Assembly (NCBI GenBank): GCA_015487695.1
Contig: WFPF01000121.1
Location: forward strand, 1 to 46,615
DNA from: Chitinophagales bacterium
GTDB lineage: Bacteria > Bacteroidota > Bacteroidia > Chitinophagales > S012-47
Length of the DNA: 46,615 bases
Reading direction: 5' to 3'
A program made the translations under genes and the position numbers. The notes beneath the pieces were generated by a model. That model was not told where the DNA came from. It saw only the letters and a list, made by a program, of their open reading frames with translations, and did no database searches. Of the stretch, positions 1-44,747 are shown in pieces. Within the stretch, counting starts at the first letter, position 1. Each line of letters opens with the position of its first letter.

Positions 1-64
1 CAAGGCTAAAAAGCCGAAGAGTGTTTTGACTCTCGAGCACCGCAAACTTATGTGGTGCTCTTTT
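1..64 (+). ncRNA. 3' tail of a tracrRNA-like RNA (nexus plus two hairpins), partial
   Basis: The first 64 bases carry three successive hairpins in the order seen at tracrRNA 3' ends. They are a nexus-like GGCT-AAAA-AGCC (4-15), a small stem AGAGT/ACTCT (18-33), and a terminator stem GAGCACC/GGTGCTC (35-41 and 54-60) followed by TTTT. The nexus AAGGCTA..GCCG matches the one in the complete tracrRNA at 231-322 in sequence and position, but the downstream stems differ. The anti-repeat would lie left of the window, so identity rests on the fold only. It could instead be the terminator of an unrelated gene. Confidence 0.5.
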
Positions 65-126
65 AATTCTATCAGAAACCACCCAATAGAATTAGTACCC
101 AAATCAAGTCCCAGAATTTTACTCAT
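1..126 (-). pseudogene. cas9: cas9 5' end (RuvC-I motif), broken after about 16 codons; runs to window edge
   Basis: Read leftward from the ATG at 126-124, the first 16 codons give MSKILGLDLGTNSIGW, the start of Cas9 with its RuvC-I motif (the Asp in GLDLGTNSIGW is the nuclease catalytic Asp). The frame stays open to base 1 but its remaining 26 codons do not resemble Cas9. The usual Ala/Ser after the Trp is a Phe, and the arginine-rich bridge helix that should follow soon is not in sight. Those codons are antisense to a rho-independent-looking hairpin at 35-64. I read this as a truncated or recombined cas9 whose recognisable coding ends near base 79. The alternatives are a very divergent intact cas9 running out of the window, or an assembly join. 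The divergently oriented tracrRNA at 231-322 supports identity as a type II (probably II-C) locus. Confidence 0.6.
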
Positions 127-194
127 AGCAGCGTTAGGTTGGTTATAAGAACGAACTTACTGATTTTCATAAACCTATAAAAACACTTTATCCA

Positions 195-225
195 TTGTTT
201 TTAAGTTCTTTTTGATTTAACTTTG
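195..225 (+). promoter_or_regulatory. Bacteroidota-type promoter of the tracrRNA
   Basis: TTG at 195-197 is followed after 20 bases by TAACTTTG at 218-225, a perfect match to the Bacteroidota -7 consensus TAnnTTTG with a normal distance to the -33 element. Transcription should begin about 6-8 bases after the box, near 231-233, just at the start of the anti-repeat. Confidence 0.65.
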
Positions 226-230
226 CCATT

Positions 231-322
231 GAAGATTTTATCCATTTGAAATCTTTTCACAATAAGGCTATATGCCGCAGGTTTAAAAACCTCAAGCCCT
301 GCTTCGGTAGGGCTTATTTTTT
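231..322 (+). ncRNA. tracrRNA of a type II (likely II-C) CRISPR-Cas9 system
   Basis: About 90 nt. The 5' part (231-262) reads as an anti-repeat. Its reverse complement begins ATTGTGAAAAGATTTCAAAT, close to the 5' end of long Bacteroidota type II repeats, which typically start GTTGTG. It is followed by a nexus hairpin GGC-TATAT-GCC (266-276), a second hairpin AGGTTT/AAACCT (279-292) and a terminator stem AGCCCT/AGGGCT (295-314) ending in a T run to 322. A clean promoter sits directly upstream. The RNA is transcribed away from the cas9 stub, a known type II-C arrangement. It would pair with pre-crRNA for processing and Cas9 loading. No repeat array is visible in the window, so the cognate repeat is predicted, not seen. 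Confidence 0.72.
295..322 (+). terminator. Terminator of the tracrRNA
   Basis: The stem AGCCCT (295-300) pairs with AGGGCT (309-314) around GCTTCGGT and is followed by TATTTTTT. It is a classic intrinsic terminator and doubles as the last tracrRNA hairpin. Confidence 0.75.
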
Positions 323-41727: not shown

Positions 41728-42702
41728 ATGAGCAAAGGACCGGTTTCCCAATACATCGAAAAACACTTTCTTCATTTCAATGCAGCGGCCCTGACAGATG
41801 CCGCCAAAGGCTACGAGCGGCACCTGGAGCGAGGCGGAAAAATGATGATCACCCTGGCAGGTGCCATGAGCACGGCCGAGCTGGGCAAATCGCTGGCAGA
41901 GATGATCCGGCAGGACAAAGTGCATATTATCAGTTGTACCGGTGCGAACCTTGAAGAAGATGTTTTCAACCTCGTGGCACACGATTTTTATAAAAGAATA
42001 CCCCAATACCGCGATTTGACACCTGAGGACGAATGGAAACTGCTGGAGCAGAAGTACAACCGCGTAACCGATACCTGCATCCCCGAAGAAGAAGCCATGC
42101 GCAGAATTGAAGACAAGATGCTGCAACTCTGGGCCGAAGCGCGTGACAGCAGCAGGCGCTATTTCCCGCATGAATTCTTTTACCGGCTGCTTCGCGATGG
42201 ACGGCTGGAAAGCGAATACCAGATAGACCCGAAAGACAGTTGGCTGCTGGCTGCCATGGAAAAAAACCTGCCCATTGTGGTGCCGGGATGGGAAGACAGC
42301 ACCCTCGGAAACATATTTGCCGCGCACTGCATCCGGGGCTCATTTGAGCCCACCCTCGTAAAAACGGGTATCGAATACATGGCCTGGCTGGCCGACTGGT
42401 ATATGAAAAACTCGGATGGAGCCGGCATCGGCTTCTTCCAGATCGGAGGCGGCATAGCGGGCGATTTCCCGATTTGCGTGGTTCCTATGCTCTATCAGGA
42501 CCTGCAAAAAGAGGAGGTGCCCTTCTGGGCCTATTTTGCCCAGATATCCGACAGCACCACCAGCTACGGCTCCTATTCGGGGGCTGTTCCCAATGAAAAA
42601 ATCACCTGGGGCAAACTGAGTGTCGATGCACCGAAATACATCATCGAGTCGGATGCCACCATTGTCGCCCCGCTGATTTTTGCCTGGGTGCTGGGCTGGT
42701 AA
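41728..42702 (+). CDS. Deoxyhypusine synthase-family protein (homospermidine synthase-like)
   Basis: 324 residues. The NAD-dependent aminobutyl-transfer family. The catalytic lysine corresponds to K296 in TWGKLSVDAP. The region ITLAGAMSTAELGKS, the metal-free NAD site (SCTGANLEED) and the C-terminal block DATIVAPLIFAWVLG agree with deoxyhypusine synthase. Bacteria lack eIF5A, so bacterial members generally make homospermidine from putrescine and spermidine or have an unknown protein target. The gene stands alone after a 284-base gap. Confidence 0.83.
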   Translation: MSKGPVSQYIEKHFLHFNAAALTDAAKGYERHLERGGKMMITLAGAMSTAELGKSLAEMIRQDKVHIISCTGANLEEDVFNLVAHDFYKRIPQYRDLTPEDEWKLLEQKYNRVTDTCIPEEEAMRRIEDKMLQLWAEARDSSRRYFPHEFFYRLLRDGRLESEYQIDPKDSWLLAAMEKNLPIVVPGWEDSTLGNIFAAHCIRGSFEPTLVKTGIEYMAWLADWYMKNSDGAGIGFFQIGGGIAGDFPICVVPMLYQDLQKEEVPFWAYFAQISDSTTSYGSYSGAVPNEKITWGKLSVDAPKYIIESDATIVAPLIFAWVLGW

Positions 42703-42800: not shown

Positions 42801-44747
42801 ATGAAAAAGCAAAGAATAAGCAGGCAAATTGAAGCACGGGGCATCAACGAATCGCGAATAATAAAAGCCATAGAAAAAGTAGACCGGACGGCCTTTCTGC
42901 CGGTTGCTCTACACGAACTCGCATACGAAGACCTGCATCTGCCGGTTGACAAACGCATCTATCTTCCGCGCCTTTACGTGACGGCCCGCTGGCTGCAGTT
43001 GCTCGATGTCCGGGAGGGCGACAAGGTCTTGCTGCTGGCTTTCGATTCGGGCTACCTTCTCTCCATTCTCGCCCGCCTGGCCGCAGAAGTGTATGCCGTG
43101 GATGAGCAGGATGAATACATCGAGTTCATAGAAAAAATCCTTCAGGAGCAGCAGATTGACAATGTCCGTTTCAAAACCGGACCTGTAGGCAGCGGCTGGC
43201 CCGATCATGCTCCCTACGACAAGATATTCGTAGCCCGGGAACTGCCTTCGATTCCCGAAACACTGGAATCGCAGCTCAGGGAAGGCGGAAGGGCCGTAAT
43301 GCCTGTGGGGCCCGACTGGTCGCACCTTTACCTTGAAGTGATGGAGAAGGATACAGATGGACAAATCAGCCGAAAATTTATCAGCGATTCCTACTTCATT
43401 CCCAAGCCGCGGGTACTGCCATCCATTCCCGAAGAAAAGGCCGACCCGGAGGAGACCCTGGCCGCGGTAAAGCGCATTTACCTTCCTTTTGAAAGCATTG
43501 AGCGCTACGATACGGATGCCATTCTTGATCGCATTGGCGATGCCCGCATTGTCCTCTTCGGAGAAGCCTCCCATGGCAGCAGCGAGTTTTACCGCATGCG
43601 GCAAAAAATCAGCAAAGCCCTGATCAGGGAGAAAGGATTTAAGATCATCGGGGCTGAAGCCGACTGGCCCGACATGGAAATTGTGAATCACTATGTGCAC
43701 GGAAGGCTAAAAGGCGAATTCCGTACACCCTTCAGAAGGTTCCCGCAATGGATGTGGCGCAATGCCGAGTTTCTGGAGTTCAGCGAATGGCTGAAAGCCT
43801 ATAACCGGAGCACTGAAAAGAAAGTATCCATCTACGGGCTGGATCTTTACGGACTGGAAAATTCCGTTCATCACGTGCTCAATTACCTGGAAGAAAAAGA
43901 TCCCGTACTTGCCCGGGAAGCAAGAAAGCATTACTCCTGCATCACACCCTACATGGAAGACCCCTCGGTATACGGTCAATTGGTGCTGAGCGGCCGTCTG
44001 GAGAGTTGCGAGCAGGAGGTCATGCAAATGCTCATAACCCTGCTGAAAGAGCGTGAAAAACTCAACCACAACAGCGAAGCATTTTACTACGTCTATCAGA
44101 ATGCACGCGCCATAGCCGATGCCGAGCGTTATTATAAGATCATGTATTACGGAGGTGCCGACTCATGGAATCTGCGCGATCAGCACATGTTCCATACGCT
44201 TCGTTCGCTGCTGGCCTTCCACGGCCCCGATTCGAAGGCCATCGTGTGGGCCCACAATTCACATATCGGCAATGCCCTGGCCACACAGATGTATGCGCGG
44301 GGTGAGATCAACATCGGCCATCTCTGCCGAGAAAGCTTTGGCGATAAATCCTACCACATCGGCTTTGCCACCGATCACGGCCGCGTGGCCGCAGCCGACA
44401 ACTGGGGCGAAGCCATGAAAATAAAAAAAGTCAAACCGGCCCTTCCCGGCAGTTATGAGGAAATCATGCACCGAAGCGGAGAAAAATGCTTCAGCCTGCC
44501 GCTGCGCAGCAATGCGAGCAAGCCCGATGCCCTCCGTCTGCTTGCCTCTCCGCGCCTTGAACGGGCCATAGGCGTCATCTACCGGCCCGATACCGAACGG
44601 CAGAGCCATTATTTCCTGGCATCGCTGCCGGCACAGTTTGACGAACTGATCTGGTTTGACGAAACAGAGGCGGTAAGGGCCCTCCAGGGAGAAGAGGAAA
44701 GAAAGGATCTTCCGGCACTGCATCCTTTTGCCACCCTGGACGAGTAA
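42801..44747 (+). CDS. Pseudo-PCMT domain fused to an erythromycin-esterase-like domain
   Basis: 648 residues. Residues about 1-205 have the L-isoaspartate methyltransferase (PCMT) pattern (RQIEARGINESRIIKAIEKV, HELAYEDLHLPV) but both key parts are altered. The usual GQTISQP catalytic loop reads DKRIYLPRLYV, and the SAM loop (normally EIGTGSGY) is LLLAFDSGY at 77-85. Residues about 222-640 are an EreA/ChaN-like esterase domain with GEASHGSSEFYRM at about 253, GAEADWPDMEIVNHYV and a later AHNSHIGNA, so the esterase core looks intact. It may hydrolyse a lactone or ester other than a macrolide. The stop directly abuts the convergent kinase gene with no spacing. Confidence 0.8.
   Translation: MKKQRISRQIEARGINESRIIKAIEKVDRTAFLPVALHELAYEDLHLPVDKRIYLPRLYVTARWLQLLDVREGDKVLLLAFDSGYLLSILARLAAEVYAVDEQDEYIEFIEKILQEQQIDNVRFKTGPVGSGWPDHAPYDKIFVARELPSIPETLESQLREGGRAVMPVGPDWSHLYLEVMEKDTDGQISRKFISDSYFIPKPRVLPSIPEEKADPEETLAAVKRIYLPFESIERYDTDAILDRIGDARIVLFGEASHGSSEFYRMRQKISKALIREKGFKIIGAEADWPDMEIVNHYVHGRLKGEFRTPFRRFPQWMWRNAEFLEFSEWLKAYNRSTEKKVSIYGLDLYGLENSVHHVLNYLEEKDPVLAREARKHYSCITPYMEDPSVYGQLVLSGRLESCEQEVMQMLITLLKEREKLNHNSEAFYYVYQNARAIADAERYYKIMYYGGADSWNLRDQHMFHTLRSLLAFHGPDSKAIVWAHNSHIGNALATQMYARGEINIGHLCRESFGDKSYHIGFATDHGRVAAADNWGEAMKIKKVKPALPGSYEEIMHRSGEKCFSLPLRSNASKPDALRLLASPRLERAIGVIYRPDTERQSHYFLASLPAQFDELIWFDETEAVRALQGEEERKDLPALHPFATLDE

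What the first reader, a model, noticed from the sequence alone, without database searches (positions are those of the whole stretch)
1..322. Two different tracrRNA tails in tandem: possible CRISPR-Cas9 system replacement scar
The tails at 1-64 and 262-322 share the AAGGCTA...GCCG nexus and the same order of three hairpins but differ in the later stems, so they probably belong to two type II systems. The second, complete tracrRNA has its own promoter and points away from the cas9 stub. The first points toward it. This fits a new cas9-tracrRNA unit having replaced an older cas9 body, leaving the older tracrRNA and 16 codons behind. An orphan tracrRNA could still load a heterologous Cas9 or regulate it. 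I do not know of a description of this exact arrangement.
Basis: partly seen in the sequence, partly recalled or inferred. Interest (0 to 1): 0.88.

Follow-up and report, generated by a model that had tools for sequence, protein, structure and literature searches.

The report
Two tracrRNA tails beside cas9 stub
The very end of this contig carries pieces of two different CRISPR-Cas9 systems side by side (two unlike guide-RNA tails and only the first 20 codons of a cas9 gene), most likely the scar of one system overwriting another; because the contig breaks off there, nobody can yet see whether a working Cas9 follows.

Summary
The window is a whole contig (G000:C121), so base 1 is a contig end. 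Bases 231-322 are a complete type II-C tracrRNA (promoter, anti-repeat, nexus, hairpin, terminator). It diverges from a cas9 start at 126, an ordinary layout seen in related loci. Bases 1-66 are a second tracrRNA tail. A covariance model built without it finds it at E=2e-7, its terminator stem covaries with relatives, and it belongs to another tracrRNA sub-family. Cas9 homology stops at base 67, directly against that tail's terminator. About 35 tracrRNA-bearing genomes turned up in two surveys and a BLAST; only this one has two tails together. No cas9, cas1 or matching repeat was found in the 98.7%-complete assembly. The replacement itself, and a cas9 left of base 1, are inferred. A chimeric contig tip is the main rival and cannot be excluded without reads. 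Loading of a foreign Cas9, or regulation of it, has no support. Four orphan tracrRNA tails without nearby cas9 in other genomes suggest that leaving a tracrRNA behind after cas9 loss recurs in this class.

The parts
1..66 (+). Tail 1: 3' part of a tracrRNA (nexus GGCT-AAAA-AGCC 4-15; hairpin AGAGT..ACTCT 18-33; terminator stem 35-60; T-run 61-64). Anti-repeat lies off the contig. 47-nt-repeat II-C sub-family.
   Evidence: Covariance model E=2.3e-7, model built without it; fold z=-5.6; terminator stem 100% paired with 3 compensatory pairs against G591, G777, G283, G101; alignment
67..126 (-). cas9 stub: first 20 codons (MSKILGLDLGTNSIGWFLIE), RuvC-I motif, cut off where the tail-1 terminator begins
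   Evidence: tblastn of L025 Cas9, 85% over 20 aa, 126-67; TIGR01865 E=2e-4
64..94 (.). Junction between tail 1 and the cas9 stub (break at about 65-67, at latest 78), spanned by a 9-bp inverted repeat TAATTCTAT/ATAGAATTA (64-72, 86-94)
   Evidence: Direct sequence; 4 of 2000 shuffles, but 6 of 661 windows of this contig, hold such a repeat
195..225 (+). Bacteroidota-type promoter of tracr2 (TTG 195-197, TAACTTTG 218-225)
   Evidence: Consensus TAnnTTTG found by scan; similar boxes (TATATTTG and the like) precede tracrRNA in relatives
231..263 (+). tracr2 anti-repeat
   Evidence: Matches the anti-repeat part of G037 and G060 tracrRNA loci
264..322 (+). tracr2 tail: nexus 264-277, hairpin 279-292, terminator 294-315, T-run to 322. 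36-nt-repeat II-C sub-family
   Evidence: Covariance model 71.2 bits (it is one of the 14 training rows); BLAST hits to G049, G037, G060 at E 1e-12 to 1e-13

Best explanation
This is a type II-C CRISPR-Cas relic at the edge of a second type II-C system. System B (36-nt-repeat sub-family) once stood here as [cas9 leftward | tracr2 rightward]. A second system A (47-nt-repeat sub-family) was joined from the left. It ended with its own divergent tracrRNA, whose terminator now abuts codon 20 of cas9-B, and cas9-B and everything downstream of it were lost. tracr2 keeps promoter, anti-repeat, nexus and terminator and is probably still transcribed, but has no cognate Cas9 or repeats in the assembly, so it is probably a non-functional leftover. 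Cas9-A, if it exists, should start about 65-80 bases left of the contig end, as in related system-A loci. Shown: two tails, their sub-families, the stub, and absence of cas9 and cas1 in the assembly. Inferred: order of events, cas9-A to the left, transcription, loss of function.
For: Independent covariance-model detection of tail 1. Sub-family assignment and covarying terminator stem. cas9 with a divergent upstream tracrRNA is the standard layout, so [cas9-A | tracr-A] followed by [cas9-B stub | tracr2] is two standard units in the same orientation. Cas9-B homology ends exactly at tail 1. A random chimera would rarely place a tracrRNA tail beside a cas9/tracrRNA pair. Orphan tails without nearby cas9 occur in four other genomes (G777, G462, G430, G498), so tracrRNA outliving cas9 is recurrent.
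Against: The junction lies within 66 bases of a contig end, where assembly errors concentrate. Nothing left of base 1 is known. No cas9, cas1 or repeat was found in a 98.7%-complete assembly. No second genome shows the arrangement. A 9-bp inverted repeat spans the junction, as can happen at template-switch joins.
Confidence: 0.58

Rival explanations
1. Chimeric contig tip. The last 66 or so bases were joined by a library or assembly artefact to an ordinary, intact cas9-B/tracr2 locus whose remainder is on an unbinned contig. Tail 1 comes from another CRISPR locus, in the same cell or another organism.
For: Junction is at a contig end; strong hairpin plus a 9-bp inverted repeat at the junction; cas9 and array missing as if lost in binning; arrangement seen once only.
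Against: A random chimera would seldom pick a tracrRNA tail. Crossing of assembly paths through the conserved cas9 start would keep each tracrRNA on the upstream side of cas9 and cannot place it inside cas9. Tail 1 has no second copy in the assembly.
Confidence: 0.27
2. Pure decay. Two II-C systems once stood in tandem and both lost their cas genes; only two tracrRNAs and 20 cas9 codons remain, so no cas9 lies to the left.
For: No cas9 or cas1 anywhere in the assembly; orphan tails in G777, G462, G430, G498.
Against: The contig ends before the place where cas9-A would begin; CRISPR loci often drop out of binned assemblies (own knowledge).
Confidence: 0.12
3. Tail 1 is not a tracrRNA: it is the 3' end of a gene for a lysine-rich protein (KAKKPK...) with a terminator.
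For: The nexus-like string alone occurs by chance in coding DNA of unrelated genomes.
Against: All three hairpins in the tracrRNA order and spacing, covariance model E=2e-7, compensatory changes with cas9-linked relatives.
Confidence: 0.03

Closest known systems
Type II-C CRISPR-Cas loci of Bacteroidota (for example Riemerella anatipestifer, 47-nt repeats, anti-repeat upstream of cas9; PMC5006608)
   Same: cas9 with a tracrRNA upstream; nexus AAGGCTAnnnGCCG, hairpin, terminator (the nexus comparison is with relatives fetched here, not with R. anatipestifer itself)
   Different: Here cas9 stops at codon 20 and a second tracrRNA tail follows at once
Degraded type II loci with a predicted tracrRNA but no cas genes (for example Spiroplasma syrphidicola second locus; PMC6882279)
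   Same: tracrRNA surviving without cas9
   Different: Here two tracrRNA tails of different sub-families are in tandem, and no array is seen
Orphan tracrRNA tails found here in G777/G462 (L108/L109), G430 (L112), G498 (L113)
   Same: tracrRNA tail without a nearby cas9; G777/G462 are of the tail-1 sub-family
   Different: Single tails; no cas9 stub

Membership tests
tracrRNA of type II-C CRISPR-Cas (tracr2, 231-322) | Anti-repeat, nexus, hairpin(s), rho-independent terminator | tested here: met
tracrRNA of type II-C CRISPR-Cas (tracr2, 231-322) | Pairs with a CRISPR repeat in the same genome | tested here: inconclusive
   No repeat-like match other than itself in the assembly, but the array may be unbinned or lost and the pattern search was limited
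tracrRNA of type II-C CRISPR-Cas (tracr2, 231-322) | Adjacent to cas9 | tested here: met
   Divergent from the cas9 start at 126, as in relatives, but cas9 is truncated
tracrRNA of type II-C CRISPR-Cas (tail 1, 1-66) | Nexus, hairpin and terminator | tested here: met
tracrRNA of type II-C CRISPR-Cas (tail 1, 1-66) | Anti-repeat | not testable with these tools
   Lies beyond the contig end
[quoted passage not shown]
   No cas9 or cas1 in the assembly; no array with the predicted repeat; cas2 not searched
Scar of one Cas9 system replaced by another | Intact cas9 of the second system next to the foreign tracrRNA | not testable with these tools
   Contig ends inside tail 1

The most novel reading that the evidence does not exclude
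CRISPR-Cas9 loci in Bacteroidota exchange whole cas9-tracrRNA cassettes at one site, a divergent cas9/tracrRNA unit being stacked onto and truncating its predecessor within the first cas9 codons, so that a transcribed foreign tracrRNA stays beside the new system and may interfere with or serve it.
Probability: 0.15. Interest if true: 0.6.

Novelty: new variant of a known kind. Interest (0 to 1): 0.36.

Why it matters
If the junction is real, it is a frozen intermediate of one Cas9 system overwriting another, including the exact break point, in a group with at least two unlike tracrRNA sub-families. It would let one ask whether leftover tracrRNAs are silent, are tolerated, or disturb the new system. 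The orphan tails in four other genomes mean the question does not rest on this contig alone.

Tried and rejected
Rfam finds no tracrRNA family here, only chance hits. Exact and loosened tail-1 patterns in genome contigs and viral contigs gave nothing, or only lysine-rich coding DNA. No plasmid match. I tried to find the other side of the gap by synteny: in the same-genus genome G001 a Crp/Fnr-like gene and cytochrome oxidase genes precede the SpoU methylase, but in the own genome only a distant oxidase cluster on contig C13 was found, so the gap could not be bridged. A shared contig-end repeat was excluded: tail 1 is unique in the assembly. Fold-back inversion of the contig end was rejected because 1-63 is not the reverse complement of 95-157 (inspection; no such inverted repeat). 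The two isolated repeat-like hits in C103 and C107 are single matches inside other sequence, not arrays.

Full report
What is there. The window is the complete contig G000:C121, and its first base is a contig end. Reading rightwards on the plus strand: a tracrRNA tail without its anti-repeat (1-66), the first 20 codons of a cas9 gene on the minus strand (126-67), a promoter region, a complete tracrRNA (231-322), and then chromosomal genes (SpoU-family RNA methylase, PALP-family enzyme, LysM protein, NfeD).

Are the tails real? I built a covariance model from 14 tracrRNA tails (13 from related genomes, plus tracr2), leaving tail 1 out. It finds tracr2 at 71 bits and tail 1 at 34.5 bits (E=2.3e-7 in the window, 1.6e-5 in the genome). 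Tail 1 folds into three hairpins, 5.6 standard deviations below shuffled sequence. In its nearest relatives the terminator stem is fully paired, with three compensatory pairs and no broken pair. The nexus string alone would not have been enough: it occurs by chance in lysine-rich coding DNA.

The second tracrRNA is ordinary. In related genomes a cas9 start (...ILGLDLGTNSIGW...) lies on the opposite strand about 60-220 bases upstream of the tracrRNA nexus, and the tracrRNA points away. The window's cas9 start and tracr2 repeat this layout. The stub is 85% identical over 20 codons to the Cas9 of G060 (L025), and tracr2 is closest to the G049/G037/G060 group, which has 36-nt repeats.

Tail 1 belongs to a different sub-family. 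Its features (AGAG...CTCT hairpin; CCGCAnAC...TGTGG terminator) are shared with G101, G283 and G591, whose nexus is preceded by CAAC. These are cas9-linked, with arrays whose copies are 76-77 bases apart (repeats of about 47 nt). They are also shared with orphan tails in G777 and G462.

How unusual is it? In a pattern survey of 398 genomes of the order, a model survey of 395 genomes of the class and a BLAST of 100 relatives, about 35 distinct genomes carry this kind of tracrRNA tail by my count. Only this one has two tails together. The count is approximate, as one search used a fixed pattern and one search used strict filters. Four genomes (G777, G462, G430, G498) carry a tail with no cas9 or cas1 in the 13-17 kb read around it, so a tracrRNA outliving cas9 is not unique to this genome. 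G777 and G462 are from one genus and may be one event.

What is missing. The assembly (98.7% complete) has no Cas9 by TIGR01865. That model does recognise the relatives' Cas9s at E below 1e-90. It has no Cas1, no second copy of tail 1, and no array with a repeat fitting the tracr2 anti-repeat. alone would be weak, since repeats of relatives differ from the anti-repeat at several positions; one search used the form expected from relatives. The array and any cas9-A may be in unbinned sequence. I could not bridge the gap by synteny.

The junction. Cas9 homology reaches base 67 and the terminator T-run ends at 64, so the join lies at about 65-67, or at the latest 78 if codons 17-20 match by chance. 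It is spanned by a 9-bp inverted repeat, which 4 of 2000 shuffles but about 1% of this contig's own windows also hold. This is weak evidence for a template-switch origin, natural or technical.

Interpretation. The best reading is a relic of system B at the right edge of system A, stacked in the same orientation. Evidence for a real event is that a random chimera would hardly pick a tracrRNA tail, and that both units have the standard layout. Evidence for an artefact is the position at a contig tip. I put 0.58 on a real scar with a second system to the left, 0.27 on a chimeric tip, 0.12 on decay of both systems. These are judgements, not computed probabilities. Cross-loading of tracr2 onto another Cas9 is not supported: dual-RNA and Cas9 exchange only between closely related systems (PMC3936727), and these are different sub-families. 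Whether that limit applies within II-C of Bacteroidota was not tested.

Known context. tracrRNA upstream of cas9 in Bacteroidota II-C is described (PMC5006608). A locus with predicted tracrRNA and array but no cas genes is described in Spiroplasma (PMC6882279). My literature searches turned up no description of two tracrRNA tails of different sub-families in tandem at a truncated cas9; the library holds open-licence papers only, and I read titles, abstracts and selected passages.

Noticed in passing
L108:8007-8087 and L109:7767-7847 (G777, G462, one genus): Orphan tracrRNA tails of the tail-1 sub-family with eroded anti-repeat, beside small genes and, in L109, type I restriction-like genes (by inspection); no cas9 or cas1 within the 17 kb read. 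The terminator part is identical in both species, so it may be kept as a terminator.
   Followed up: partly
L112:5969-8632 (G430): Degenerate 47-nt CRISPR repeat copies and a tracrRNA tail that follows directly on a repeat-like stretch, without cas genes nearby: it looks like a decayed II-C locus.
   Followed up: partly
L113:3882-3943 (G498): Orphan tracrRNA tail of the tracr2 type with N bases in its second hairpin; no cas9 within the 13 kb read.
   Followed up: no
window 42801-44747 (+): One open reading frame joins a protein-L-isoaspartate methyltransferase domain (PF01135) to an erythromycin-esterase family domain (PF05139).
   Followed up: no
window 41728-42702 (+): Deoxyhypusine synthase family protein (PF01916) in a bacterial genome.
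   Followed up: no
window 64-72 and 86-94: 9-bp perfect inverted repeat exactly across the tail-1/cas9 junction; origin unexplained.
   Followed up: partly
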